NCBI GenBank assembly: GCA_019239825.1
Contig: JAFAZK010000280.1
Coordinates: forward strand, 28,214-92,213
Length of the DNA stretch: 64,000 bases
Origin: Verrucomicrobiota bacterium
GTDB taxonomy: Bacteria; Verrucomicrobiota; Verrucomicrobiia; Chthoniobacterales; JAFAMB01
Direction: 5' to 3'
Shown: positions 21,909 through 38,666 of the stretch, piece after piece
Layout: each line of letters opens with the position of its first letter
Numbering within the stretch: position 1 is the stretch's first letter
Translations under genes and position numbers: made by a program
The notes under the pieces: generated by a model
Told to the model about the DNA's origin: nothing
Database searches by the model: none
What the model saw: only the letters and a program-made list of their open reading frames with translations

Positions 21909-22613
21909 ATGAGGACAGCTGTATTAGCCGCGCTCTCGATTGCAGTCTTAATGGCGACGGGGAAGATGGCCCCGGCGCAGCAGCCCGTTACTGTTGATAT
22001 TCCGATTCTGAATCAAACCCTGATCGCATCTAGTAATCAGACGCTTTCTATCAACGGGGATGGTAAACCCAGGGTGATTACCGGTGATAATAACAAGATC
22101 CAGATTCACGGCGATTGTTCGAGTCTGAAGGTCATAGGTAAAAGCAACACGGTTGAAGTGGAACGGGTGGGAGACATCCAGATGATTGGCGCCTCGAACC
22201 GGGTATCTTATGTGCGCACGCTTAACGGTGATACCCCGACTATCGCGAATATCGGGCAGGATAATGAGGCTAAGCAAGTGGCTGGCCTGGATTCCGCCAA
22301 TGTGGCGACGCCGGGTCCGTCTGCGGAAGATAGCGGCGATGTGCAGTTGGTCATCCTGACCAATGATAACCAGACGCGACCGATCAATAAGCCGCACGTC
22401 AGATTGGTTGGCAGCAATAACTCTCTCGTGTTTACCGGCGTTGCCCAGGAACTCGAAATCGACGGATCAAACAACGACGTCGAGATCGATCAGGTCACCA
22501 AAGTTATATTCCACGGCTCGAATAATGATGTGACCTACAAGCAATCTCTAAGCTCGGGAGACGTTGTTTCGGAAGCGCACGGCTCGAATAATGAGGTCGA
22601 GAAAGCGGACTAA
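21909..22613 (+). CDS. Secreted DUF3060-like protein
   Basis: Signal peptide plus repeats ITGDNNKIQIHGDCSSLKVIGKSNTVEVERVGDIQMIGASNRVSY. Confidence 0.7.
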   Translation: MRTAVLAALSIAVLMATGKMAPAQQPVTVDIPILNQTLIASSNQTLSINGDGKPRVITGDNNKIQIHGDCSSLKVIGKSNTVEVERVGDIQMIGASNRVSYVRTLNGDTPTIANIGQDNEAKQVAGLDSANVATPGPSAEDSGDVQLVILTNDNQTRPINKPHVRLVGSNNSLVFTGVAQELEIDGSNNDVEIDQVTKVIFHGSNNDVTYKQSLSSGDVVSEAHGSNNEVEKAD

Positions 22614-23292: not shown

Positions 23293-23670
23293 ATGAAAAA
23301 CCTATCAGGAAGATTCCGCTTGTTTATAGCAATGCTCGGCTGTTCAGCATCCCTGGCTATTGGACAAAGCGTTGTTCGCGGTACGGACACCGCTCAACAG
23401 ATCATGGCGTCAAATCAGAAGTTGTCGTTTGACGGCGCTAACAAGACTTTTCAAATCCTCGGTCATGATGACGAGGTTACGGTCACGGGCGATTGCTTCG
23501 CGGTTTCTGTGCTAGGCACCAACAACAAGGTGATCCTCGATGGGGTTGGCGTCATCCAAGCCGGCGGCAGCGGCAATTTGATTACCTATCGTCGGGGACT
23601 GAATGGGGACGCGACCCCTAAAATCGCGACGACTGGCGAGAACAATAAGGTGGTCGCTACCGGTCAGTAG
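23293..23670 (+). CDS. Small secreted DUF3060-like protein
   Basis: Signal peptide; VTVTGDCFAVSVLGTNNKVILDGVGVIQAGGSGNLITYRRGLNGD. Confidence 0.7.
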   Translation: MKNLSGRFRLFIAMLGCSASLAIGQSVVRGTDTAQQIMASNQKLSFDGANKTFQILGHDDEVTVTGDCFAVSVLGTNNKVILDGVGVIQAGGSGNLITYRRGLNGDATPKIATTGENNKVVATGQ

Positions 23671-23772: not shown

Positions 23773-24228
23773 TTATCTTGCCGAACCCCGAAGCCGTTTC
23801 GCCAGATAGGATCGTTGATGGCCGCGGGGATAGTCTTCCAATGTGCCGAAGACCTTAAACCCGAGTTTTTCGTAGAATCCGGGTGCCTGATAGTCAAAGG
23901 TGTCCAGATAGATCGCATCGCACTCTTGCTCAACGGCCAAGGCTTCTGCGCGCGCCATTAATTCACGGCCGATCCCTTCTTTTCGGAACTGTCGGTCGAC
24001 GTAAAGGCTTGAGACAAAGAAATGATTCCAGTGAGTAAAGCCTAACAGTCCCGCGATGAACTCGCCAGAGTCAGAACGCACGACAATAGCGAATTCCTTC
24101 TTGTTTCGCGGCCCTACCTGCGCCTCGTTGTAGGCGATCAAGGGGTCGATGATGCTGTAACATTCTTCAGGCGTTGGCTCGGACCGCAAGGTATAGGTAA
24201 GTTCCATTGTTGGTCGCTGGGTCCACAA
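23773..24228 (-). CDS. GNAT family N-acetyltransferase
   Basis: FFVSSLYVDRQFRKEGIGRELMARAEALAVEQECDAIYLDTFDYQAPGFYEKLGFKVFGTLEDYPRGH. Confidence 0.9.
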   Translation of the reverse strand: MWTQRPTMELTYTLRSEPTPEECYSIIDPLIAYNEAQVGPRNKKEFAIVVRSDSGEFIAGLLGFTHWNHFFVSSLYVDRQFRKEGIGRELMARAEALAVEQECDAIYLDTFDYQAPGFYEKLGFKVFGTLEDYPRGHQRSYLAKRLRGSAR

Positions 24229-24459: not shown

Positions 24460-27400
24460 CTACACCTCAAACGCCAGGATACGCGGAAGCTCGCCGGGAT
24501 ACGCAAAACATAGCAGCGAATATCCGATCCCGGAGATTCCGCGAAACAGGCTCGGTGAGAAGCAGAAGTTTTCGCCCACACTCTGTTGAAGACGAAAGAA
24601 CGCTCCTCGCAGACCGCGTTCGAGAGTTTGCTCGATAAGATTCGCGGCACTAGCCTGGAACTCAGGCCGGTTCTCCCGGCTGGCGATATAACTCAGGACC
24701 TCGGCAATGCCGAAGTTTCCGCAGCACCAGTGGTCCATGCTGCCTCGCTGGCGGATCTTTTCAACGACGATATCCAGCTCGTCGCGGGAAAGCTTTTGCG
24801 GTGTCTCCACGCCGACCGTGGCTAAAAGAATGCCGGCGGCGCCGTTGCACCAGTTATTGAGAGAACCTTGCGGTCCTCTTACTGCGATTGGCCAAGAACT
24901 GTTTTTCGGGTCAAAAAAACCTCTCATCAGTTTCAAGGCTCGCTCAACGAGTTCGTTGAACTGTGGATCACAGAAAGTGCGGCTGTATTCGGTCAAGGCA
25001 AAACTGATGCCCGCTAAGCCGTGAGCAAAACCGACATAGGAATCGCCGTTAGACCTGGTCCAGCCGAGCTCGGGATGGTAACGAGCCGCCAGCATCCGAG
25101 CTGCAGCGAGCGCGTTGCCGGCCGCACCGGCGTCTTTTGTGACCTGATAAAGTCGTGTAAGCGCGACTAACAATCCGGCCACACCCGAGATTATGTCAGG
25201 CTCATCCGTTTCAGGCCTTAATTTGACTCTTTTATTCAGCGCTAGAGCCAGTGCAGTCCAATCACTGTCCTTGGTTAGCCTTCCCAGAACCAAAGCGCCG
25301 TAAATCAGAGCCCCGACTCCATTGCAGATACCGGGAGGATAGTCAGCAGGCGGCTCGAAGACAGCCAGCCTTTCCATGAATCTCGATCCCGGGCGTTTCG
25401 GGAAAGCGGATCCTGTTAACTGGTCAACCGCCGCTAGAAAAATGAGCGGCCCCATATCTCCCAGATAGATCCCTTCGCGGTGAGCAGCGCTGAGATCGCG
25501 CGGAAGAAAACTCGGCGGATCCCATAGATACGGGCCATCTGATTTACTGATTCGCTGAGTTAATTCGTTAGCAAACTGCTGGACGACTGTTTCGGCCTGC
25601 GCGCCGGTTAACGGCTTTTCGATGGTCGCTGGAAAACGTCTGAGGGATTCCTGGATCACCTCCGTCTGAAAGCGGAAATCGTCTGCTCCCATGGCAGCGA
25701 TTCGTTCGAAAACGATATCGATCGGTTTCTTTCGAGCCGCGCTGGGCAGATGAAAGTTTCGACCAAGTAATTCCGTGCTGTTCAGCCGAATATGGAACCT
25801 CGGTATATCCAAGCCGAGCAATGACTGAACCTCGAAATCGATCAGCGTCTTGGTTTCTGGGGTTAGAGCGTTGTCTCGCAACGGGACACGATAAAGCTGC
25901 TCAAAAACGATGCTTTGGCGCACGCCAGAGGTCAGACATTTGGGAGCACGTGCTTGCTTCAGCAGGAAACCATAAAGGGTCGTCGGACGGTAAACGAACC
26001 TGGTCTTACTTTGGGCAAATTGTTCGATTAACCGGCTAAACTCGGTTTTCCGATCTGATACGAAATGATAGAGCCGGCCAAAGCCCGTTATGAGTTCGGC
26101 TTGGTAACGCCGCACATCCTGGATCTCATTGCCCAAACGGACAGTGTTGCCGGCATGCCTGGGTGATCGCGGCTTGGTGACTGGCCGCATCTGGTCGGAG
26201 TTGAGATTTTCCCAGTCAGTCACGTTTGTGTGTGTTAGGTCCACAAAACCGCTGCCCAGGCCGCAATAATCTGCCGGTACATGGGAGGCGCTTAATTGCC
26301 AGAAGGGCAACAAACCGGTCTCGATCACTGATGGGTTTCCTAGTTCCAAGACGTGCGCAGCGCCAGGTGTCGAATCGAACTTCGCGCTTCCACGTCCAGG
26401 GTGAAAAAATGATTCCGTGTCGATAGGAACCGGGCGATCGCCGGCAGCGATCACATTTTCGAATCCCAGATCACATCCATTCAGCAGATAAGCCAGACAG
26501 AGGAGTTCGCCACCGCCCCGGTAATAATGCCGGACATCTTGGGCGTTTTGACAGGGAGATTGTTCGATAAATTCTTCCCAGCCATATTCCTCACGCTTGA
26601 TTACTCGCGCCAGGCGCCAAGCCGCGGTGAATCCGACCCCGGCAAGCCACCGATCAACTCGAACAAGCGCTTCAGCAATGGAAAGGTCTTTAGGCTTGTA
26701 TAGCACCTGCTTGCCGTCGTCGAAAATGAGCAAGATCACTTGCTTACCTCCATCGTGCCGATCCGATATGCCCGTTTTTGTCCGTACTAGTTTTGGCCAG
26801 CGATTCTCTGACTGACCCAACGCGATCACTTCAGAAAAGTCAGTTCGGAGACGCTCCAGGAATAGGTTAGTGGAGTTAGTCCAGGATGTGAGTAAATGGC
26901 TGATCTGGCGGGCTAAAACCGGGAATCGTTCAAATAAGATCCGGTACTCGCTTTGGCGGACGCTTTGGATAAAGGTCTCGAAACTGCCGCCATTCTGCTG
27001 ATGTTGAGAGAATTGCGCGAAGCTCGGGAAAGAAGCAAGTTCGGAGATTTCTTGGAGAAGCGAAAGCAGCAAAGAATCGATCGCCGATGCCGTCACGGCG
27101 TCGGGTGACAGCGATAAGTTCTGACGAGCGAAAGCGATCAGGGGTAGCCAGAGAACTGAAAATGGAAATGCTTGGCTCCCCTCCAAATCAACGGGGGGAT
27201 ACTGAAGAGCTTGGTTGAGAACTTCTTCCCATCGATCCCTTTGGGTCACCGGTTCTGGCGGCTCGGAGGTGACATAAACGGCCTGCTCTTCGGAAACACC
27301 AAGCGATCTCAGGCGAGCAGAAAATCGGTCATAAGTGCCCGTCGTGAATACCTGTTTCCAATCGCGGAAATCGTCTCCGGGTTCCGGAGTTGCCTGGGGT

Positions 27401-27474
27401 TCGGTAGGCGCTGCGGCTAACCGCTCGTGAAGATAGTGAGCTTGGGCAGAGAGGGCAGCTAATGATTTAGACAT
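24460..27474 (-). CDS. lanM: Type 2 (class II) lanthipeptide synthetase LanM
   Basis: 1004 aa. Dehydratase region QVLLIFDDGKQVLYKPKDLSIAEALVRVDRWL and HYYRGGGELLCLAYLLNGCDLGFENVIAAGDRPVPIDTESFF; C-terminal LanC-like domain with WCNGAAGIL and HWCCGNFGIAEVL zinc motifs. Confidence 0.95.
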   Translation of the reverse strand: MSKSLAALSAQAHYLHERLAAAPTEPQATPEPGDDFRDWKQVFTTGTYDRFSARLRSLGVSEEQAVYVTSEPPEPVTQRDRWEEVLNQALQYPPVDLEGSQAFPFSVLWLPLIAFARQNLSLSPDAVTASAIDSLLLSLLQEISELASFPSFAQFSQHQQNGGSFETFIQSVRQSEYRILFERFPVLARQISHLLTSWTNSTNLFLERLRTDFSEVIALGQSENRWPKLVRTKTGISDRHDGGKQVILLIFDDGKQVLYKPKDLSIAEALVRVDRWLAGVGFTAAWRLARVIKREEYGWEEFIEQSPCQNAQDVRHYYRGGGELLCLAYLLNGCDLGFENVIAAGDRPVPIDTESFFHPGRGSAKFDSTPGAAHVLELGNPSVIETGLLPFWQLSASHVPADYCGLGSGFVDLTHTNVTDWENLNSDQMRPVTKPRSPRHAGNTVRLGNEIQDVRRYQAELITGFGRLYHFVSDRKTEFSRLIEQFAQSKTRFVYRPTTLYGFLLKQARAPKCLTSGVRQSIVFEQLYRVPLRDNALTPETKTLIDFEVQSLLGLDIPRFHIRLNSTELLGRNFHLPSAARKKPIDIVFERIAAMGADDFRFQTEVIQESLRRFPATIEKPLTGAQAETVVQQFANELTQRISKSDGPYLWDPPSFLPRDLSAAHREGIYLGDMGPLIFLAAVDQLTGSAFPKRPGSRFMERLAVFEPPADYPPGICNGVGALIYGALVLGRLTKDSDWTALALALNKRVKLRPETDEPDIISGVAGLLVALTRLYQVTKDAGAAGNALAAARMLAARYHPELGWTRSNGDSYVGFAHGLAGISFALTEYSRTFCDPQFNELVERALKLMRGFFDPKNSSWPIAVRGPQGSLNNWCNGAAGILLATVGVETPQKLSRDELDIVVEKIRQRGSMDHWCCGNFGIAEVLSYIASRENRPEFQASAANLIEQTLERGLRGAFFRLQQSVGENFCFSPSLFRGISGIGYSLLCFAYPGELPRILAFEV

Positions 27475-27479
27475 AAATA

Positions 27480-27503
27480 GCCGCCATCGGAACCGATGGC
27501 GGC
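27480..27503 (-). promoter_or_regulatory. Perfect hairpin between precursor genes and lanM start (possible attenuator / RBS occluder)
   Basis: GCCGCCATCGG-AA-CCGATGGCGGC, 11-bp perfect arms, 2-nt loop, ending 6 nt before the lanM ATG. Confidence 0.75.
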
Positions 27504-27547
27504 TTCAAAAATGCTTCGTCCTAGCAAATAAGTGCTATCGGCGCGGC

Positions 27548-27682
27548 TTAGGCGATGTTGACCGTGCTCAACACGTTGGAGCAGCTGACGCTCTGAATAG
27601 AGGTGGTATCGTTGATGCCGCCGGCAACGTCTTCGAGTTGTTCGTCGCTAATGGATTCTGGTTTGTTGGTTTCTTCGCTCAT
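27548..27682 (-). CDS. Lanthipeptide precursor copy 1 (44 aa, double-glycine leader)
   Basis: Hand translation MSEETNKPESISDEQLEDVAGG|INDTTSIQSVSCSNVLSTVNIA*; not in ORF track (below size cutoff). Confidence 0.92.
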   Translation of the reverse strand: MSEETNKPESISDEQLEDVAGGINDTTSIQSVSCSNVLSTVNIA

Positions 27683-27748
27683 ATTATCCGTAGGTTTATG
27701 GTTCTCGTTTGTTAAGTCGGAATTGGCCGGCTTTTCTCTGGCGCGGCT

Positions 27749-27883
27749 TTAGGCGATGTTGATCGTGCTCAACACGTTGGAGCAGCTAACGCTCTGAATA
27801 GAGGTGGTATCATTGATGCCGCCGGCAACGTCTTCGAGTTGTTCGTCGCTGACCTGTTCTGGTTTGTTGGTTTCTTCGCTCAT
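27749..27883 (-). CDS. Lanthipeptide precursor copy 2 (44 aa)
   Basis: Hand translation MSEETNKPEQVSDEQLEDVAGG|INDTTSIQSVSCSNVLSTINIA*. Confidence 0.92.
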   Translation of the reverse strand: MSEETNKPEQVSDEQLEDVAGGINDTTSIQSVSCSNVLSTINIA

Positions 27884-27952
27884 ATTAAATCGGTTTGTCC
27901 GGTTTTGGGTTTCTTTTAGGATCGGAGTTCGCCCATTCTTCCTGTGCCAGAC

Positions 27953-28087
27953 TTAGGCGATGTTGACCGTGCTCAACACGTTGGAACAGCTAACGCTCTG
28001 AATAGAGGTGGTATCGTTGATGCCGCCGGCTACATCCTCGAGTTGCTCATCACTGATCGATTCTGGTTTGTTGGTATCTTCGCTCAT
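27953..28087 (-). CDS. Lanthipeptide precursor copy 3 (44 aa)
   Basis: Hand translation MSEDTNKPESISDEQLEDVAGG|INDTTSIQSVSCSNVLSTVNIA*. Confidence 0.92.
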   Translation of the reverse strand: MSEDTNKPESISDEQLEDVAGGINDTTSIQSVSCSNVLSTVNIA

Positions 28088-28149: not shown

Positions 28150-28464
28150 TTAGAGGCTGGAATCCGGGCCTAAGAACGTGTTGTTCTCAGCGCTTAAGAA
28201 TCCGCCCGCTATTGTTTCAAGCTCGGCGTCCGAAAGGTTTGCATTCTGGTCCGGGAAATCCTTTGGCAAGACGATGTACATCAGATCGTCTGTCTCTTGC
28301 AGGAGTACTACCTTCAGCCGATCCGGTAATGTGGTGCCTAGTGCTCGCTCGACGGCGAACTTTGGGTTCGCTAGCAAGGATTCCCGAAACGCCTCATCTT
28401 TCAAGGCCGCCCTTACGAGTACCTCTTTGACGTCTTTTCGTGAGATATTCGAGTTGGAATCCAT
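28150..28464 (-). CDS. NHLP (nitrile hydratase-like leader peptide) family RiPP precursor
   Basis: ALKDEAFRESLLANPKFAVERALGTTLPDRLKVVLLQETDDLMYIVLPKDFPDQNANLSDAELETIAGG|FLSAENNTFLGPDSSL, typical NHLP leader with a GG site. Confidence 0.85.
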   Translation of the reverse strand: MDSNSNISRKDVKEVLVRAALKDEAFRESLLANPKFAVERALGTTLPDRLKVVLLQETDDLMYIVLPKDFPDQNANLSDAELETIAGGFLSAENNTFLGPDSSL

Positions 28465-28578
28465 TTCTACTCTTTGTCTCCGGTGTGCCCGACATCCACT
28501 TCCGTGTCCGCCGAGCTATTTAGCAATGGGTGTGCCATAACTACGTCTGTTGATTCAAGTATCTGGGATATGGTCAGT

Positions 28579-28684: not shown

Positions 28685-29848
28685 TCACTCCTCTGGCTTC
28701 AGGCGATGGTGCCGCAGAAAATCCATGAACTTTTGATAGTGTTCCGGCCTGATATTGAGTAGGACACTCATCCGGCGATAACTGCCTCTGGCTGCTAACA
28801 GTCCCTGGGAGATTATCTCGCGGACCTGAGCTCGATTTAAGTCGCGGTCGAGAAAAGGCTCATGAACGACGTCCCAAAACGACCTCCCCTGCTCGACCAT
28901 ATCCTCGAATAGTTCATTCTTGCCGGTGCCCGGACCAGGTAAACTTGCTTGGCGAAGCTCGCTGACAAAATGATCTGGCTCTATGTACTTTGATTCCGCC
29001 ATGGAGAAGCCGATCGTGACGATGCTCCGGAGCTCCCGAACATTGCCCGGCCAGGGGTATCGCTCTAGAAACTTGATCGATGTAGGCGAGAATGCCTTCT
29101 TGAGGTTGTATTCCTGATTCAGCTTATCGACAAAATAACTAATTAATAGTTTCCAATCCTCATCGCGTTCCCGCAAAGCTGGGATATCCAAGGGAAAATA
29201 GCGGAGGCGGAAATAAAGATCTTGGCGAAAATGACCGGTGGCGATCATATCGCGCAGCGGTCTGTTAGTGGCTGCTATTACCCGAACATCCACCGAATAG
29301 GTTTTGGTCGAGCCCAACGGTTTAACTTCCTTTTCCGCGAGTGCTCGCAGCAACATGGTCTGAGCAGTGGGAGGAAGATCACCGACTTCATCCAGGAAAA
29401 CGGCGCCTCTGTCCGCCGCATCAAATAGACCTTTATGATCAGCGATGGCGCCGGTAAAGCTGCCTTTAACGTGCCCGAATAGTTCGCTAACGGTTACGTT
29501 GCCTTCGCTGTATTGTGGGCAATTGACCACCACAAAAGGCTCGCTAATGCGCGAGCTCATCAGATGGCAGGCTTTAGCAAATAACTCTTTGCCTACACCA
29601 CTCTCGCCTGTGATCAGGATGGTTTGATTGAATTTGGCGAACTTTTGAACTTTGTCTAAAGTGTCTCGCATTTTCGAACTGACACCGACTAGATCAACCG
29701 CTTGCTTTATTCCCCATTTCTCTAGGGACTTGACGCGGACCTGGAAGGCCACATCCGTCATGGTTTTGTCAGTTTCGCGGCTAACTTTCGTAGACGGAAA
29801 CGGAACCACGTTAGCGGTACTATCGCTCTCCATAAATGCAAGACACAC
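28685..29848 (-). CDS. Sigma-54 interaction domain transcriptional activator lacking a receiver domain
   Basis: GESGVGKELFAKACH (Walker A), GSFTGA loop, GAVFLDEVGDLPPTAQTMLLRAL (Walker B), RYPWPGNVREL; short N-terminus with no receiver. Confidence 0.92.
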   Translation of the reverse strand: MCLAFMESDSTANVVPFPSTKVSRETDKTMTDVAFQVRVKSLEKWGIKQAVDLVGVSSKMRDTLDKVQKFAKFNQTILITGESGVGKELFAKACHLMSSRISEPFVVVNCPQYSEGNVTVSELFGHVKGSFTGAIADHKGLFDAADRGAVFLDEVGDLPPTAQTMLLRALAEKEVKPLGSTKTYSVDVRVIAATNRPLRDMIATGHFRQDLYFRLRYFPLDIPALRERDEDWKLLISYFVDKLNQEYNLKKAFSPTSIKFLERYPWPGNVRELRSIVTIGFSMAESKYIEPDHFVSELRQASLPGPGTGKNELFEDMVEQGRSFWDVVHEPFLDRDLNRAQVREIISQGLLAARGSYRRMSVLLNIRPEHYQKFMDFLRHHRLKPEE

Positions 29849-29928
29849 GAGGCCGGGAACCGCCCTTATCCTCTACCTACTCTGGACCATACCAACTGTT
29901 TTTCCGCAAGATGCGCGTAGGGTCCTGT

Positions 29929-29995
29929 CCCATAAATAGCATGGCTTTTGCCGGCGGCCTATTCTGATCGCGACGAAAGCCATGTTATTTATGGG
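29929..29995. terminator. Long inverted repeat between transporter and activator genes
   Basis: CCCATAAATAGCATGGCTTT ... AAAGCCATGTTATTTATGGG: 20-bp arms, one mismatch, 27-nt loop. Confidence 0.65.
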
Positions 29996-30015
29996 TAGTA
30001 CCCTAAGTTACAGAA

Positions 30016-32967
30016 TCAGGCTAGTTGTCGTCTGGCGAGGTCGGCGAATGGTCCCGCCTGATTCATCAACTCAGTGTAAGTCCCGGTCTGTGCGAGTTCA
30101 CCATTTTGCAGCACGAATATTCGATCCGCATTGATGATCGTGCTCAACCGGTGCGCGATGACGATTCGGGTCGCCTGCATCGCGTCCAAACTTTCCGTGA
30201 CTTTTCTTTGGGTTTCATTGTCCATGGCGCTGGTCGCTTCGTCAAAAAAGACAATGCGGGGCCGGTTTACCAGCGCTCGGGCAACCATTAGCCTCTGGCG
30301 CTGCCCCCCGGAAAAGGTGCCGCCTCCCTCCGAGACCACGGTGTGCATGCCCATGGGCATATTCTTGATGTCCCGGTCTAGACCAGCCATTCTCGCTGCT
30401 TCCCAAGCGTCGTTCACGCTTAGGTTGGTATGTGAACCGATAATGTTCCGATAAATGTCGGTGGGCATCAGCCGGCTGGATTGCAGGACAACGCCGATCT
30501 GCTGGCGAACTTCGCGGATATCCAAAGAAGACATTTCCTGGCCGTCGTAAAAAATTGCGCCTGATTCGGGTTTTTCGAAGCCAAGGAATAACCGCAAGAG
30601 CGTCGACTTGCCCGAACCTGATCCTCCAACTAGAGCCACGAACTCGCCAGGCCTGATGCGCAGCGAGATATCTTTCAAAATCAATGGTGCATCCTGGTTG
30701 TATCGGAACGAAAGGTGGTAAACCTCCAACTCACCGCTCAACTCGCCGGGGTGGGCTTTTGCCTCATCGATTTCGGGTTGGGCTTCGATAACGGGCCGAA
30801 GCCGCTGGAACAAAGGTAAGATCATTAAAAGATCCAACACGACCGTACTCAGTGACAACATGCTTGAGAGGACGTTGGTAAATACTCCGTTAAACGCCAC
30901 GAATTGGCCGGTGGTCATGTTGAATTTCTCTTGTCCCTGCGCAGCCTGATCCTTGAACCAGCCATATAAAAGGAATAGCAGAGCCGTCGCGATCACGGGA
31001 TAAACCCGGCTGAAAACTTGAACGATATTCCCGAGAAATTCGACTCGGAAGGCCAGCCTTTTCTGAGTCGAGAACTTCCTGGTCCATTCCCGGAACGCAG
31101 AATCTTCGGCGCCGGACACTCGGATTTTCGCAACCCCGTTTATCAGCTGCAGAACCAAGCCTGTAATTAATCCTCGGATGCGGAACATCTGCCGCTGGTT
31201 CGTCAGCTGCATCAAGTTGATGCAGAGCGGTAAGATCACGGAGAAACCGATAAGACCGAACGCCGCCCAGGCCATCTTGGCGTTGAACGTAAAAAGGAAG
31301 ATGCCGGTTATCAATGTGCTGATAGCACCGACGATGGCTTGAGTACCGGATTGAGAAATAGCCTGCCGAATCTGTTCGACTCCCAATGCCCGGTCTGTGA
31401 GGTCACCTGAGGTATAGTCGCGAAAGAATTGAGATGGCAGGTTGAGTAGACGGTCCCAGACGCCTGCTTGTACGGAATAATCCATTTTGCCGGTCAGGCG
31501 GAGGACGGCGATCGAACGAGTTAGTTCGAAAGCGAATGTGCCTAAGGCGGCCGCGAAAAGCCCAACGGCAAATTGAGCCAGTTGACTGCGATCGGCAGCG
31601 GGAATAACGCTGTCGATGATCTGACCGCTGAAGTACGGCGTTACCATTCCCAAAAACCCAACTAACACTCCCATCAGGCTGATGGTGCGCAGATCGGCGT
31701 GACAAGTCCGCATGCCGAATTTAATCAGGTCCCAAGCACCAAGCCGCCTTTCCGGTAGAGGCGTATATAAAGAAACGGCGAAGGGCGACAGAGTGGCAGC
31801 GCTTGAAGCAGTAACCACAACGCGTTCCACCGTGCGTGGGTCCGCTAACTCATACGTCGTGTGTCCGGTTTTCAAAATCGCGACTGGCTCGAGGGTGCCC
31901 TCGCGAAACGCTAGCAATGGGCCATGATCGACTTCCCACCACTCGCCTCGGAGCGCTATGGTGCGGTACCGGAACCGGGAAGCCTTTGCGATCGCTGCGA
32001 GTTTATCGCTGACTTGAAAAAGATCGGCTGGGACCTTGACCTGAATGCCGGATGCCTCTCCTACGAGCCGGCAAGCGATGACCAGGGGATTGCCGGAAGG
32101 GTCGGCGAGCAGGCCGGCCGTCTGGAGTTCGCGACGAGTCGCCAGCACGGAGGCGATTTCGCGCAGAGCGGTATCGCGCGACCGCAAACCGGACGCCTCT
32201 CGCGCACGCAAGCGATTAAAATCATCAACAATTCTGAGCTTCTTATTGATGAACTCGCATTGGCACAACACCTCGTGGAATAGCCCAAGGCCGATCCAGA
32301 AAGTAGGTTGGGTGATGCTGGCAGGAGAGGAAAAACATGACAGCAGGTTATCGTCATAAGATTCGATCCATGTGTCCGAAGACAGAGGAAGGATAGGAAC
32401 CCCTTCACCGGATAAAGAGACTCCTTCCATACCCATGTAAAGCGCTTCTCCGCGCAGGACCTGTATCCACACGATCCCGCGGCGCGCTCGAGCGATCTTG
32501 CCGCGAGGCAGTAACACTTGCTTACCGCCGACGAGAACCTCATCCGCTTTTGGTAGTGGCCTCGTATCGCGCGAGACACTGGCAGAAAGCTGTTCGAGCC
32601 AGTGATCGATGAGTTGGCTGAGAGTAGCAGCGTATTCGTGATCGCGTGCCAGCCGTCTCAGATCATCTTGACGCAGCCCGACCAGCTCCGAGCCTTCGCG
32701 ACCGGTGAGCAAAAAACAGTAACCGTGCGCTTGCTTGTTAAAGTCCATCCCGAAAATCAAGGAACCTGGCTCCAGCGAAAGGAAGTGTGACCGCGGGCCG
32801 GTAGCTTCGCCGGCTTCGAGCTGCACGGTGAAAATTTCAATCCGGCCCGTGGCGATAAACCAGACGTTCTCAGATCCTTCAACGACGAAAGATTGGTTCA
32901 ACCGGAGGACCTGTAGTTCACCGGATTGAATGAGAGCGTTACTAAGAGCTGCTGAAATGGCCGGCAT
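30016..32967 (-). CDS. NHLM bacteriocin system ABC transporter, ATP-binding/permease with cNMP-binding-like N-terminus
   Basis: N-terminal sensor-like region, 6-TM domain, GGSGSGKSTLLRLFLGF, FSGGQRQRLMVARALVNRPRIVFFDEATSAMD. Confidence 0.88.
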   Translation of the reverse strand: MPAISAALSNALIQSGELQVLRLNQSFVVEGSENVWFIATGRIEIFTVQLEAGEATGPRSHFLSLEPGSLIFGMDFNKQAHGYCFLLTGREGSELVGLRQDDLRRLARDHEYAATLSQLIDHWLEQLSASVSRDTRPLPKADEVLVGGKQVLLPRGKIARARRGIVWIQVLRGEALYMGMEGVSLSGEGVPILPLSSDTWIESYDDNLLSCFSSPASITQPTFWIGLGLFHEVLCQCEFINKKLRIVDDFNRLRAREASGLRSRDTALREIASVLATRRELQTAGLLADPSGNPLVIACRLVGEASGIQVKVPADLFQVSDKLAAIAKASRFRYRTIALRGEWWEVDHGPLLAFREGTLEPVAILKTGHTTYELADPRTVERVVVTASSAATLSPFAVSLYTPLPERRLGAWDLIKFGMRTCHADLRTISLMGVLVGFLGMVTPYFSGQIIDSVIPAADRSQLAQFAVGLFAAALGTFAFELTRSIAVLRLTGKMDYSVQAGVWDRLLNLPSQFFRDYTSGDLTDRALGVEQIRQAISQSGTQAIVGAISTLITGIFLFTFNAKMAWAAFGLIGFSVILPLCINLMQLTNQRQMFRIRGLITGLVLQLINGVAKIRVSGAEDSAFREWTRKFSTQKRLAFRVEFLGNIVQVFSRVYPVIATALLFLLYGWFKDQAAQGQEKFNMTTGQFVAFNGVFTNVLSSMLSLSTVVLDLLMILPLFQRLRPVIEAQPEIDEAKAHPGELSGELEVYHLSFRYNQDAPLILKDISLRIRPGEFVALVGGSGSGKSTLLRLFLGFEKPESGAIFYDGQEMSSLDIREVRQQIGVVLQSSRLMPTDIYRNIIGSHTNLSVNDAWEAARMAGLDRDIKNMPMGMHTVVSEGGGTFSGGQRQRLMVARALVNRPRIVFFDEATSAMDNETQRKVTESLDAMQATRIVIAHRLSTIINADRIFVLQNGELAQTGTYTELMNQAGPFADLARRQLA

Positions 32968-32998
32968 AAGACTGGACCTATCAGCGGTCCACTCTACG

Positions 32999-33037
32999 GC
33001 AGCGGAATATTCCGGCTACGCCGGACCATTCCGCTGC
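32999..33037. repeat. Hairpin 1 of three in the transporter gap
   Basis: GCAGCGGAATATTCCGGC-TAC-GCCGGACCATTCCGCTGC (two mismatches). Confidence 0.75.
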
Positions 33038-33084
33038 ACTGGCGGAAGATGTTGTTAATAGTATCTCGTTCATTCTTTCAGATA

Positions 33085-33120
33085 GGCAGTTAGATAGGCG
33101 CTAACGCCTATCTAACTGCC
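33085..33120. repeat. Hairpin 2 of three in the transporter gap
   Basis: GGCAGTTAGATAGGCG-CTAA-CGCCTATCTAACTGCC, perfect 16-bp arms. Confidence 0.85.
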
Positions 33121-33123
33121 CAT

Positions 33124-33171
33124 AGCCTGCGTTCTTAAAAAATCGCCGACGATTTTTTAAGAACGCAGGCT
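33124..33171. repeat. Hairpin 3; member of the AGCCTG...ATCG-NNGA-CGAT...CAGGCT family; likely also terminator
   Basis: AGCCTGCGTTCTTAAAAAATCG-CCGA-CGATTTTTTAAGAACGCAGGCT, perfect 22-bp arms directly after a transporter stop. Confidence 0.85.
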
Positions 33172-33173
33172 GG

Positions 33174-35357
33174 CTAGTGGCTTATCAATTTCGAGTACGG
33201 TCCTCCTGCGTTTTTCATCGATTCATGAGTTCCTCGTTCCGCCACTTTCCCGTATTCCAAGACGATGATTTCGTCGCAGTCCCGGATACTACTCAGCCGA
33301 TGCGCCACAATTAAACAAGAGCAACCGCGACGCCGCAGATTTTGATCGATCTGTTCCTCGGTGCTCGGATCCAAAGCGCTGGTGGCCTCGTCCAGGATCA
33401 ACAAACTCGGCGAGTTGACCAACGAACGCGCAATCTCCAGGCGTTGACGTTGTCCCCCCGAAAAGTTAACCCCACCTTCAGAGACTTGGCTGGACAGACC
33501 GCCTTGACGGGAAGCGACTACATCGGCGATGGCTGCATCCTTGCAGGCTTGTGTGATGTGCAAATCTGGTATCCCGGTGTCCCACATGGTAAGGTTGTCT
33601 CGAACCGTGCCTTCGAACATAAAAATATCCTGATCGACCATCGCGATCGAATTATGCAAAAGGCGTGGCGGGATTTTGTCTCGAGGGACACCGTCCAAGA
33701 GTATCTCTCCGCTCCAGGGCTTAAAAAGCCCGGCAACAATCTTGGAAACCGTAGACTTACCACTCCCACTTCCACCAACTAGCGCTACCCGATGCCCTGG
33801 CCGAATACTGAAGCTGAGGTCCGCAATCAGCGGCGGCGCCAGCGGATTGAAACCGAAGGTCAGATTGCGCACATCGAGCTGACCGCTGAGCTTAATCGTC
33901 GCGTCAAACCGCGGGTCGACTGACTGTTCTTGGAGATACGCCGAGTCTATTTCGTAGCGCAGAACATCATCCAAACGATTCAAATCGGAACCGGTCTCTT
34001 GTAACACGTTACCAAAGGTTACAAAAGAGGTAATCGGCTTGGTAAATCCGTCCATCAGCGACTGGAAAGCAACCAGCAAACCGATAGTTAGATGCCCGTC
34101 CATGACCCGCCAGCCGCCTAACCCGAGGATCGTGGCAGTGATCAGGGCCTTGGTAAACGGCGGAACGGCGGAGAGACTTTGACCATAAAAATCCATCTCT
34201 TGTTCGGCCTGAATGGTCTTGGCTTGATAGCCTCCCCAACGGGCAAAAAACTCGTTCTCGCCGCCTGTCGCTTTGAGAGTTTCGATCATCTGCACGCCGT
34301 TCATCGAAGTACCCATTAGTTTTCCGCGCTCTTGCAGAAGCCGGAAACTCGCGTCAACTCTCGGGCGTTGAACCAGTTTGACGCCGAGGAGGTTGAGCAT
34401 GGCCAAAGAGACGCACGCCAGGGTGAGCCAGACATCGTATTGAAACATTACCAGGGCGAAAAACAGGAGCGCCATCAGGTCAAGAGCCGTGGTTACCATT
34501 TTGTCGGACAGCACCTTGGCCACTTTGTCATTGATCAGCACCCGCGAACCGATCTCACCCGCATAACGCTGGGAGAAAAACTCCATCGGCAGCCGGATAA
34601 CATGGGTAAAAAATTTAGCGGATGTGGTTAATGCCAGCTTGGTCTCCAGTCGCAAAAGGAAGTGCCTCTGCAAGGCGACAAGGAAGAGCATGAAAAGAAT
34701 CGAGACCCCCATGGTCGAAAGCAGGGGACGCAAAATGTCAGTTTTATCGCCGATGAGAAATTCATCGATAAAAACGCGCGTGAACGAAGGGTTAACAATG
34801 TTGGGGATGATCAGCAGCAGCCCCGTCAACAACGCGTAACTCAACCCGATCTCGAAACCAGAAACCCGCCGGCGCAATGCTGCTGCGAGACTCGGCTTTT
34901 CTCCGCCCGGAGTAAAACTCGGACCTGGCTGAATAGTTAGGACAACGCCGGTGAAAGAAGCCTCGAGCTCTTCGAGCGCAACTCTGCGCGGTCCAGTCGC
35001 AGGATCATTAAGATAAACCTTACCCTCGGCGACCCCTTCATATACCAAAAAATGATTGAAATTCCAATAGAGGATCACCGGCGGCTTCATCTTCAGCAGA
35101 GCCTCTAGCTCGCAGCGGATACCCTGACTCACCATCCCGTACCGGCGGGCCGCTTTGAGTAGATTACTCGCCTTACTACCATCCCGGCCGACACCGCATT
35201 CCAGTCGGAGTTGTTCCAGCGGAATCCAGAGATTGTGATAGCGAAAAATGACGCCCAGGGCGGCTGCTCCGCATTCCACCGCCTCCATCTGCAACAAGGT
35301 TGGGGTGATCACTCGATCCGGAAGCCGCTCTTCCGCTGGCAGACTGGGTACGCTCAT
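33174..35357 (-). CDS. NHLM bacteriocin system ABC transporter with N-terminal C39 peptidase (leader-cleaving exporter)
   Basis: C39: TPTLLQMEAVECGAAALGVIFRYH ... VILYWNFNHFLVYEGVAEGKVYLNDPATGPRRV; TM domain; GGSGSGKSTVSKIV, FSGGQRQRLEIARSL. Confidence 0.92.
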   Translation of the reverse strand: MSVPSLPAEERLPDRVITPTLLQMEAVECGAAALGVIFRYHNLWIPLEQLRLECGVGRDGSKASNLLKAARRYGMVSQGIRCELEALLKMKPPVILYWNFNHFLVYEGVAEGKVYLNDPATGPRRVALEELEASFTGVVLTIQPGPSFTPGGEKPSLAAALRRRVSGFEIGLSYALLTGLLLIIPNIVNPSFTRVFIDEFLIGDKTDILRPLLSTMGVSILFMLFLVALQRHFLLRLETKLALTTSAKFFTHVIRLPMEFFSQRYAGEIGSRVLINDKVAKVLSDKMVTTALDLMALLFFALVMFQYDVWLTLACVSLAMLNLLGVKLVQRPRVDASFRLLQERGKLMGTSMNGVQMIETLKATGGENEFFARWGGYQAKTIQAEQEMDFYGQSLSAVPPFTKALITATILGLGGWRVMDGHLTIGLLVAFQSLMDGFTKPITSFVTFGNVLQETGSDLNRLDDVLRYEIDSAYLQEQSVDPRFDATIKLSGQLDVRNLTFGFNPLAPPLIADLSFSIRPGHRVALVGGSGSGKSTVSKIVAGLFKPWSGEILLDGVPRDKIPPRLLHNSIAMVDQDIFMFEGTVRDNLTMWDTGIPDLHITQACKDAAIADVVASRQGGLSSQVSEGGVNFSGGQRQRLEIARSLVNSPSLLILDEATSALDPSTEEQIDQNLRRRGCSCLIVAHRLSSIRDCDEIIVLEYGKVAERGTHESMKNAGGPYSKLISH

Positions 35358-36673
35358 TAATTCTTGATTCCCAGGATCTCTTTGATTTTTGGAATGACGA
35401 ACTCGACCGGGGGCTTACGCTCAACCACGATGGATGCTTGGGCTAACGTGCCGCTGAAAATACCCGTAGGCGGGCCCTGTGACGAAGACCATTTGTAGCC
35501 GCTCTTGGTTGTCGGATCAGGATACAGTTCGGCGGTTACTTCAATGGGCGCACCTTTTGACGTGAGGTCCTTAACTAGTTCGTCGTTTCGCAAAACGACT
35601 TTCATCCCGTCCGGCGTACTTGGAAAATAGGAGACACTCGAAACCTTTCCCAGGATGAAACCGTACTCCTCCGCTTTCACCGTCGAAGGCGAAATCTGGA
35701 TCTCCTGACCCGTTATTACCTTTTTGCCTTGTCCGGCCGGCACGTAGATCACCGCCTCCATCTTGGCGTCTTCCGCCTCCACCGTAATGATCCTGTCCTT
35801 GGAGCTGACGGGAGATCCTCTTTCCACTAACTTTTCAATGACCCGGCCGCTGTAGCGGCAGATGACCTTAGTGCCGGCGTCTTTCTCTTCCCGGAGTTGG
35901 TTCAAGTCCAGGGCGCTTTGATTAATTTCTTTGAGACGCGCGTTTCGCTGGGTTTGAGTTTCCCGGACCAGTTTAATCTCGCTGGTCCGGATCTCGCTCA
36001 TCTTTACTTGGGTATCGGCCGCTTGTAATTGCACCGCATAAAGAGCGTCTCTGGCTTTGTTGACCGAAGCCTGAGTAGTCAACCCTTTCTGGAGAAGGTT
36101 TGATTGGTTGTCGAATTCGGTTTGGTCAGCGTCAATTTGCACTTTATAACTCTTTTGGGCCGCCTCCATCGCCTTCTCTTCCTTCTCGTAGTCGGTAATC
36201 GCAGCGTTATCGCTTTTGGTTTCACGGGCGGTCATATCGGCATCTTGCGCCTGCAAAAGTTTGAGCTGCGCTTCCTGGGTCCTGATCTTTAACTCCAATT
36301 CTGACTGGCTCATCGTAGCCACGATCTGGCCGGTCGTAACTTCGTCACCAGGTTTGACCAGGACTTGGGTAACAAACCCGTCATTAGCGGCAGCCACGTC
36401 GTAGACAGCGCCTCCCCGAATCAGAATTCCACTTCCGCTAACCGTGTCCGGAATTCGCCCCAGAAAACCCCAGAGCAGGATCAGAAACAGGATTAGACCT
36501 AAGGCCGAGACCGCCAGCCAGCCGGCCGGCGAGGTAATCGACATTAAGTAATCAAGTTGCTCGGGGGAGGAGAGGCGCTCCAAAGCGGCTCTCCGAAAGA
36601 TGCTCCGTTCGGTGGCGCCGTTGCTACTGGTGCCATGGTGGCCGGCCTGAGATGTATTTGATGTTTGGCTCAT
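35357..36673 (-). CDS. NHLM bacteriocin system secretion protein (HlyD-family adaptor)
   Basis: Single TM, biotinyl-lipoyl halves (GFVTQVLVKPGDEVTTGQIVATM), coiled coil, GRVIEKLVERGSPVSSKDRI. Confidence 0.87.
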   Translation of the reverse strand: MSQTSNTSQAGHHGTSSNGATERSIFRRAALERLSSPEQLDYLMSITSPAGWLAVSALGLILFLILLWGFLGRIPDTVSGSGILIRGGAVYDVAAANDGFVTQVLVKPGDEVTTGQIVATMSQSELELKIRTQEAQLKLLQAQDADMTARETKSDNAAITDYEKEEKAMEAAQKSYKVQIDADQTEFDNQSNLLQKGLTTQASVNKARDALYAVQLQAADTQVKMSEIRTSEIKLVRETQTQRNARLKEINQSALDLNQLREEKDAGTKVICRYSGRVIEKLVERGSPVSSKDRIITVEAEDAKMEAVIYVPAGQGKKVITGQEIQISPSTVKAEEYGFILGKVSSVSYFPSTPDGMKVVLRNDELVKDLTSKGAPIEVTAELYPDPTTKSGYKWSSSQGPPTGIFSGTLAQASIVVERKPPVEFVIPKIKEILGIKN

Positions 36674-38666
36674 AGTTCCGGTCCTTCAAAACGGGGCCCA
36701 CCGGTTCTCTCACATCTGGAACTGTCTCGAAAGCTTGCTCGGTTATATTCGCTTGTTCGACTGCTTTCGGAAATCCGGGGACCCGCAGCGCGGTCTCTTG
36801 CGACAGCAGGGTCGCAGTTTCATATCTCAAGTCGACAATAGCGTTGGCCAGAGCTAAGCGAAAATCGACCAACTGAGTTTCCGCGGTCGTCAGTTGCTCT
36901 TCCGACTGGATAGTCTCGAACATGGTGGTTGCACCTCGGCGAAACTTTTCCCGCATGTCGTTAAAGGACTTTCTGAACGCAATCACCGCATCATGCTGAG
37001 TCTCGACGTCCGAACCCAGTTCTTGAATGGTGTCCGCACTCGCGGTCACGCTTGCGGCGATTGTAGTAGAAAGATCCTCCATCTGAATGATAGCTTGGTT
37101 CAGGTCGGATTGGGCCAGCACTACACCCCCCTTGGAACTGTTGTTGGCAAACGGCCAAGCTAACTGCGCTCCAAGCGATAAATCCAAACCGAGCTTGGTG
37201 CCTCGCTGGCTCTGGCCACTTGAGCTCGTTATCTTTTCGTTGTTGATGTCAGTCCCGATTCCGGTGGTTAGACTCGGGTATATAATGAGATCTTCCTTCG
37301 CTTTGGCTAAGCTCACCTGTTTTGACCTGATTGTCTGCAAGGCAGCAGCTCGATCGAGCCTCCGAGCCAGAGCCTCATCCACCAAAGCATCGGTGTTCAA
37401 GATTCTCGGCTGATGCTCGCTGACATCGGGGAAAGATTGAAATGCGAGCGGCAACCGGTGCAGTTGATCAGTTCTCAGACCGATGGTGATCGCCAGTTTC
37501 TTGGCAGCATCATAAACGGAAACTAATGCCTGTGTCCGTTGCGCGAATGACTGCGAACGACGGCCCTCGGCCAGCGTGACTTCACTGTAAGGAACTCCGC
37601 CTCCCTCCGCCATCTGCTTAGATAAATCCTCAAGAATAGAGTCAACCCGATAGGCGCGATCTTGCAGCGCAAATTTCTGCAAAGCGGATACCATTCCCCA
37701 GTACGCCTGGGCCGTGTCTGAGGCCGTCTTCTGAGCCTGGTTCCGTAACGTTAGTAACCTGCCTTCGTAATCGATGCGTGCCTCAATCTCTTCTGCGTCG
37801 TTGTACAGGACGCCAGCTTTCTTGAAGACCGGGATGTTAGCGGTCATCACAATTCGGTTCGTAGTCGGAGGGTATTTGTTGTTACCGGCCTGATCCACCC
37901 AGATCGGTTGATACAAAATAGACATGTCAATCCCGTTTCGAAATTTTTTGCTCAGTGAAACTTCCGTATCGATCGAGTCCGTCGCCTTTAGTTCCTGGCT
38001 CTGAACCGCTTGGGTAATTGCGCTGTTGATAGTCGAACTGCTGGCCGGGATGCCAACGGAACGAAAGATGGAGGGCAGCGCCGAGCTTAGCACTTGCTGA
38101 TTCGCGTCCAGAGAGGTATTGCTGGCTTCCGCTGGAATCGAGTGGGCGTATTTAGCAATTAATAGTGCCGTAGTGTCGAAGTCGCCTACCTTTTGTTGAA
38201 GTTTGCCTTTCGCCGATTGCGAGTCTTCGGAAGATAGTCGCAAGTCTTTGTTTTGAACGAGTGCGATTCTCACTGCGTCGAGCAACGAAAGAGAGAACAG
38301 ACCTGGCGGCGTGAGTTCAGTTAATGAGAGCGCGGATTCGAATTTCTGATCAAACTCCTCTGCCTGCTGTTGCGTGATTCCGCCGACTACCTCACCTGTT
38401 CCGCCTGGACCGGTCGGGCTCGGCGATGGTAGTTGCCCAGGTGGGATCAACGGCTTTATCTCATTGCGGTTACCTCCATGCTGCGGAAGTTCAATGGGTG
38501 CGCTTGAGGTTGGTGTGGGCGACGGTATCGCCGGTGGAACTGCCGGCGTAGTTTGAGCTTGCCCGGCAACTAAGAGGGTTGTTTCAAAGCCGATCAAACC
38601 GGCAATGCTTAACAAACTGAAGCGCAAAACATCCAACTTCGTCCTGCGATAATGAAGAGATTCCAT
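36624..38666 (-). CDS. TolC-family outer membrane protein
   Basis: Signal-like N-terminus; SLSLLDAVRIALVQNKDLRLS; duplicated coiled-coil repeats typical of outer membrane efflux proteins. Confidence 0.83.
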   Translation of the reverse strand: MESLHYRRTKLDVLRFSLLSIAGLIGFETTLLVAGQAQTTPAVPPAIPSPTPTSSAPIELPQHGGNRNEIKPLIPPGQLPSPSPTGPGGTGEVVGGITQQQAEEFDQKFESALSLTELTPPGLFSLSLLDAVRIALVQNKDLRLSSEDSQSAKGKLQQKVGDFDTTALLIAKYAHSIPAEASNTSLDANQQVLSSALPSIFRSVGIPASSSTINSAITQAVQSQELKATDSIDTEVSLSKKFRNGIDMSILYQPIWVDQAGNNKYPPTTNRIVMTANIPVFKKAGVLYNDAEEIEARIDYEGRLLTLRNQAQKTASDTAQAYWGMVSALQKFALQDRAYRVDSILEDLSKQMAEGGGVPYSEVTLAEGRRSQSFAQRTQALVSVYDAAKKLAITIGLRTDQLHRLPLAFQSFPDVSEHQPRILNTDALVDEALARRLDRAAALQTIRSKQVSLAKAKEDLIIYPSLTTGIGTDINNEKITSSSGQSQRGTKLGLDLSLGAQLAWPFANNSSKGGVVLAQSDLNQAIIQMEDLSTTIAASVTASADTIQELGSDVETQHDAVIAFRKSFNDMREKFRRGATTMFETIQSEEQLTTAETQLVDFRLALANAIVDLRYETATLLSQETALRVPGFPKAVEQANITEQAFETVPDVREPVGPVLKDRNYEPNIKYISGRPPWHQ

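What the first reader, a model, noticed from the sequence alone, without database searches (positions are those of the whole stretch)
27548..28087. Three tandem 44-aa lanthipeptide precursors with almost identical single-Cys cores, missed by the ORF track
Cores are INDTTSIQSVSCSNVLSTVNIA in copies 1 and 3; copy 2 differs only V->I at core position 19. Each core has eight Ser/Thr and one Cys. At most one intramolecular (methyl)lanthionine can form, so the mature product may be rich in Dha/Dhb or be cross-linked between peptides. Leaders are only 22 aa ending LEDVAGG. Keeping three near-identical copies suggests dosage or recent amplification under purifying selection on the core.
Basis: partly seen in the sequence, partly recalled or inferred. 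Interest (0 to 1): 0.88.

Follow-up and report, generated by a model that had tools for sequence, protein, structure and literature searches.

The report
Single-cysteine lanthipeptide precursors with swapped cores
Three small, nearly identical genes encode the raw material for a secreted peptide that a neighbouring enzyme probably cross-links, and close relatives keep the unusual one-cysteine design while the peptide's active half and its enzyme differ sharply between species.

Summary
Three 44-aa ORFs (minus strand) share a 22-aa leader ending LEDVAGG and a 22-residue core with one Cys and eight Ser/Thr. They are real genes: the copies starting at 28087 and 27682 differ by 10 silent changes and 1 replacement. 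They sit in a complete class II lanthipeptide locus of a Verrucomicrobiota MAG: TolC-like protein, HlyD, two NHLM transporters (one C39), sigma-54 activator, sigma-54 box, NHLP peptide, precursors, attenuator-like hairpin, LanM. All four genomes held for the genus have the locus, with 1, 3 or 4 complete precursors (one cut by a contig end). All five distinct cores keep one Cys; the only Ser/Thr offsets shared by all are +1, +5 and +6, downstream. LanM has the ProcM-type three-Cys zinc site, a clade that cyclises in both directions, so I predict one ring from Cys to Ser+5 or Thr+6. These LanMs lack the His of the DxH kinase motif (Gly or Trp). Against one relative, leader and activator show ordinary divergence but core and lanM are far more divergent, similarity stopping at the leader/core junction: a mosaic locus. 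Single-Cys lanthipeptides were predicted in 2024, none proven there except lipolanthines. Modification and activity are inferred.

The parts
27953..28087 (-). Precursor copy 1 (first transcribed); leader 28087-28022, core 28021-27956 INDTTSIQSVSCSNVLSTVNIA
27749..27883 (-). Precursor copy 2; core INDTTSIQSVSCSNVLSTINIA
27548..27682 (-). Precursor copy 3; core as copy 1
27479..27504 (-). 11-bp hairpin just before the lanM start, conserved in G065 and G066; predicted attenuator
24460..27474 (-). LanM, class II lanthipeptide synthetase, 1004 aa; zinc ligands C876, C917, C918; Gly337 where CylM has H349
   Evidence: TIGR03897 572.8 bits
28150..28464 (-). 104-aa NHLP-leader peptide with Cys-less core FLSAENNTFLGPDSSL
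   Evidence: TIGR03793 70.9 bits vs cut-off 50.9
28522..28537 (-). Sigma-54 (-24/-12) box TGGCACACCCATTGCT, no mismatch; also found in G065, G066 and G067
28685..29848 (-). Sigma-54-dependent transcriptional activator, AAA+; no receiver domain found
30016..32967 (-). NHLM exporter permease/ATPase (ABC2)
   Evidence: TIGR03797 900 bits
33174..35357 (-). NHLM exporter with C39 peptidase (ABC1)
   Evidence: TIGR03796 1040 bits
35357..36673 (-). HlyD-type secretion protein
   Evidence: TIGR03794 333 bits
36624..38666 (-). TolC-like outer membrane efflux protein
   Evidence: PF02321

Best explanation
The three ORFs are precursors of a class II lanthipeptide. A dedicated sigma-54 activator turns on a promoter in front of the NHLP-precursor-lanM unit. 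A hairpin before lanM lets the precursors be made in excess over the enzyme. LanM binds the conserved leader, phosphorylates and eliminates several Ser/Thr of the core, and its three-Cys (ProcM-type) zinc site closes the single possible intramolecular thioether. The most likely ring joins Cys to the Ser/Thr at +5/+6 (motif C[ST]xxLST), leaving the rest as Dha/Dhb or unmodified. The C39 transporter cuts after GG and the NHLM/HlyD/TolC-like proteins export the product. The locus stays at one chromosomal site, but core and lanM are exchanged between lineages behind a constant leader. Shown: genes, conservation, promoter box, hairpin, selection, mosaic divergence. Inferred: that LanM acts on these peptides, the ring partner (about 0.4), export, attenuation, the exchange itself and an ecological role.
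For: LanM above its curated cut-off, with the kinase/lyase residues mapped from CylM kept apart from the DxH His, and a complete zinc site. Transporter families above cut-off. The locus is in all four genomes of the genus; the order sigma54 - NHLP/precursors - lanM is complete in three, and in the fourth it is split over two contigs, the break falling inside a precursor leader. One Cys in 8 of 8 complete precursors, 5 distinct cores; +1, +5, +6 are the only Ser/Thr offsets shared by all. Sigma-54 box in 4 of 4. Hairpin in 3 of 3. Three-Cys zinc ligands mark the ProcM clade, which cyclises in both directions (PMC13060382). Window vs G066 dS: flanking STAS gene 0.36, activator 0.45, NHLP 0.39, leader pS 0.16, against core pS 0.55 / pN 0.40 and LanM saturated at 55% aa identity; the blastn block ends at 28021, the leader/core junction.
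Against: No expression or mass data. The His of the DxH motif is Gly here and Trp in relatives; in CylM the H349A change leaves only slow dehydration (PMC4550811). The NHLP peptide is another candidate substrate. The mosaic rests on three MAG loci and a chimeric assembly is not formally excluded. The ring partner rests on five related cores, and one of them (L010 8397-8525), which excludes upstream partners, may be degenerate.
Confidence: 0.72

Rival explanations
1. LanM acts on these peptides, but the lone Cys ends up in an intermolecular thioether or disulfide, giving a dimer, or stays free on a dehydrated linear peptide.
For: Only one Cys for up to eight dehydratable residues.
Against: Downstream Ser/Thr at +5/+6 are conserved at fixed spacing, as an intramolecular ring would need; LanC sites act intramolecularly in known bacterial lanthipeptides (PMC9934072 abstract).
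Confidence: 0.12
2. The real LanM substrate is the 104-aa NHLP peptide, and the 44-aa peptides are unmodified or helper peptides sharing the exporter.
For: The NHLP peptide is conserved in all four genomes and lies in the same transcript; its leader also ends in GG.
Against: Its core has no Cys, so no thioether can form on it alone; the 44-aa cores keep a Cys in every case; core and LanM divergence go together.
Confidence: 0.08
3. The enzyme is a dead or degenerate LanM because the DxH His is gone, and the locus is decaying.
For: Gly or Trp at the CylM H349 position in all four LanMs.
Against: All other catalytic and zinc residues are kept; lanM is intact and constrained (G065-G066 dN 0.19, dS 1.33); CylM-H349A is slow but reaches almost full modification in 10 h (PMC4550811); one of the checked LanMs outside the genus also lacks the His (Gln).
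Confidence: 0.05
4. A labionin-like cross-link using Ser at -6 and -3 (SxxSxxC) is formed by this class II enzyme.
For: Ser at -6 and -3 in the window cores, Thr at the same offsets in three of the four other core copies types checked (A1 and B1 have both, A3 neither).
Against: The L010 8397-8525 copy lacks both; such spacing is likely by chance in Ser/Thr-rich cores; labionins are class III products and the LanKC model is far below cut-off.
Confidence: 0.03

Closest known systems
Cyanobacterial ProcM-clade class II lanthipeptides (prochlorosins; nostolysamides NpuA/NpuM)
   Same: Three-Cys zinc ligands, LanM, GG leader, NHLM exporter genes; the Nostoc punctiforme LanM is the top plasmid hit (27% identity)
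   Different: Long Nif11-type leaders and several Cys in the N. punctiforme core; here a 22-aa leader, one Cys, DxH His lost, a sigma-54 box and activator
Predicted single-cysteine lanthipeptides (R Soc Open Sci 2024, PMC11251773)
   Same: One Cys in the core, C39/GG processing, some clusters with a class II dehydratase
   Different: That paper's text does not mention Verrucomicrobiota; here several related species and cores show that the Cys and downstream Ser/Thr are conserved
CTB family bacteriocin (NF038167)
   Same: Leader similarity over residues 1-28
   Different: Below the family cut-off (23.5 vs 32 bits); the match covers little beyond the leader

Membership tests
Class II lanthipeptide (LanM) system | LanM with fused DUF4135 dehydratase and LanC cyclase domains | tested here: met
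Class II lanthipeptide (LanM) system | Conserved dehydratase residues (CylM D252, H254, K274, D347, H349, N352, D364, R506, T512) | tested here: inconclusive
   Eight kept; the H349 position is Gly/Trp; the CylM mutant is slow but active
Class II lanthipeptide (LanM) system | Precursor gene beside lanM with leader ending GG/GA and a core with Cys and Ser/Thr | tested here: met
Class II lanthipeptide (LanM) system | Exporter with C39 peptidase | tested here: met
Class II lanthipeptide (LanM) system | (Methyl)lanthionine in the product | not testable with these tools
   needs mass spectrometry
ProcM clade | Cys-Cys-Cys zinc site (CCG) | tested here: met
   C876, C917, C918 in the window LanM and aligned Cys in the other three
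ProcM clade | Many diverse Nif11-leader substrates for one enzyme | tested here: not met
   1-4 copies of closely related cores at each complete locus
NHLP leader family (TIGR03793) | Score above the family cut-off for the 44-aa peptides | tested here: not met
   about 12 bits vs 50.9; the adjacent 104-aa peptide does pass
Labionin peptides (class III) | LanKC-type synthetase and SxxSx(2-5)C motif | tested here: not met
   LanKC model 52 bits vs cut-off 575; SxxSxxC is in the window cores, TxxTxxC in most relatives, neither in L010 8397-8525

The most novel reading that the evidence does not exclude
A class II synthetase that works without the kinase His makes single-Cys peptides whose lone Cys forms either a reverse (Cys to downstream Ser/Thr) ring as the sole cross-link, or an intermolecular or labionin-like cross-link not known from class II, and lineages exchange core plus enzyme as a cassette cut at the leader/core junction.
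Probability: 0.2. Interest if true: 0.75.

Novelty: new variant of a known kind. Interest (0 to 1): 0.5.

Why it matters
PMC11251773 states that no single-cysteine lanthipeptide had been experimentally defined, apart from the further modified lipolanthines. This locus gives a compact testable case: intact synthetase, conserved Cys, conserved candidate ring partners and natural variants for comparison, in a phylum where LanM is rare (matches in 4 of 390 sampled genomes, 2 over the family cut-off). The enzymes also offer a natural test of whether the DxH His is needed in LanM kinases, and the core/lanM difference behind a fixed leader is a natural example of the leader/core modularity that peptide engineers use.

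Tried and rejected
The genome-contig scan with LanM found only the same-genus G067 fragment, viral contigs nothing, and plasmid records only LanMs below about 28% identity. A precursor search over the class gave only leader or weak matches outside the genus. The second LanC-like gene of the assembly (C309) is stand-alone, apparently secreted, with no dehydratase or GG precursor seen nearby, and was set aside. Labionin reading: SxxSxxC is present in the window cores, but Ser/Thr at -6 and -3 are likely by chance in such cores and absent in one homologue. 'Recent tandem duplication only' was rejected as a full account because leader and core of copy 1 have different histories. Literature searches for Verrucomicrobiota LanM and for sigma-54 control of lanthipeptides showed nothing close in the titles and abstracts returned. 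An AlphaFold model of LanM from the four-sequence alignment came out at mean pLDDT 37.6, too poor to use, so no fold search was run.

Full report
Observation. Copies 1 and 3 (starts at 28087 and 27682) differ at 10 synonymous and 1 nonsynonymous positions, a silent bias with p=1.3e-6, so they are translated genes under purifying selection. They are the only significant matches in the 6.67-Mb assembly. A same-genus genome is recorded as a Verrucomicrobiota MAG.

Setting. Reading the minus strand: TolC-like protein, HlyD (TIGR03794), NHLM transporter with C39 peptidase (TIGR03796), second NHLM transporter (TIGR03797), sigma-54 activator, NHLP peptide (TIGR03793), three precursors, LanM (TIGR03897, 572.8 bits). 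A perfect -24/-12 box lies at 28522-28537 and recurs without mismatch at the equivalent place in G065 and G066 and with one mismatch in G067. G065 has a further one-mismatch box (L010 7798-7813) before its upstream block of three precursors. Between the last precursor and lanM a strong hairpin is conserved in three loci (z -4.0, -4.5, -4.3); in G065 and G066 its T tract runs into the lanM ATG, and one stem pair changes from C-G to U-A. I read it as an attenuator that favours precursor over enzyme; this is inference, and the tail in the window is weaker.

Relatives. All four genomes held for the genus carry the locus; the NHLM C39 transporter was not found in the seven other genomes of the family searched. 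G065 has four precursors, G066 one, G067 a leader cut by a contig end, with its lanM on another contig. Five distinct cores are known. All have one Cys. Ser/Thr offsets +1, +5 and +6 are present in every core; no upstream Ser/Thr is. Since the LanM carries the three-Cys zinc site of the ProcM clade, which is reported to form rings in both directions (PMC13060382), I predict a ring from Cys to Ser+5 or Thr+6. This is inference.

Enzyme. Mapped on CylM, the Asp, Lys, Asn, Arg and Thr residues of the kinase/lyase site and the first His are kept, but the His of DxH (CylM H349) is Gly337 here and Trp in the three relatives. In the other LanM or LanM-like sequences checked it is His, except for Gln in one haloarchaeal LanM. 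CylM-H349A is slow but reaches almost full modification in 10 h (PMC4550811), so an active enzyme is plausible.

Mosaic history. Between the window and G066, the flanking STAS gene (dS 0.36), activator (0.45), NHLP (0.39) and copy-1 leader (2 silent differences in about 12.7 sites) show low divergence. TolC-like, HlyD, ABC1, ABC2 and lanM are saturated or nearly so, and the core is pS 0.55, pN 0.40. Similarity ends at 28021, the leader/core junction, and LanM is highly divergent from its first codons. G067 has a third LanM type, 54-56% identical to the others. The simplest account is exchange of core plus lanM between lineages, with the leader as the join. The direction is unknown, three loci are few, and an assembly chimera is not excluded. 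The leader/core contrast between copies 1 and 3 (8 vs 2 silent changes, Fisher p=0.016) fits the same event or later gene conversion.

Comparison. By gene content this is a class II lanthipeptide system, although the product itself could not be tested. It has the zinc site of the ProcM clade but not its many diverse long-leader substrates. Single-Cys lanthipeptides were predicted in 2024 (179 peptides) and described there as not experimentally defined (PMC11251773). Hence a new variant of a known kind.

Noticed in passing
window 28150-28464 (-): NHLP peptide with a Cys-less core FLSAENNTFLGPDSSL, identical in G066, in the same predicted transcript; possible second component or second substrate.
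   Followed up: partly
L049, L054, L056, L057 (G687): Another Verrucomicrobiota genome has four scattered short peptides with a similar leader (LSDEQLEKIAGG or LSDEQLEKVAGG) and Ser-rich Cys-less cores ending SSSSSHR or SSSSIHR.
   Followed up: no
L068 9166-10476 (G000:C309): Stand-alone LanC-like protein of 436 aa with an apparent signal peptide; no dehydratase or GG precursor seen within the 19-kb stretch.
   Followed up: partly
window 21909-22613 and 23293-23670 (+): Two DUF3060 proteins beside the cluster, kept beside lanM in relatives; function unknown.
   Followed up: no
window 23773-24228 (-): GNAT acetyltransferase just downstream of lanM; GNATs tailor some lanthipeptides, but the window cores have no Lys.
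   Followed up: no
window 30012-37896 (-): The exporter block is far more divergent from G066 (73% DNA identity) than the adjacent activator (91%), with a second breakpoint near 29911-30012.
   Followed up: partly
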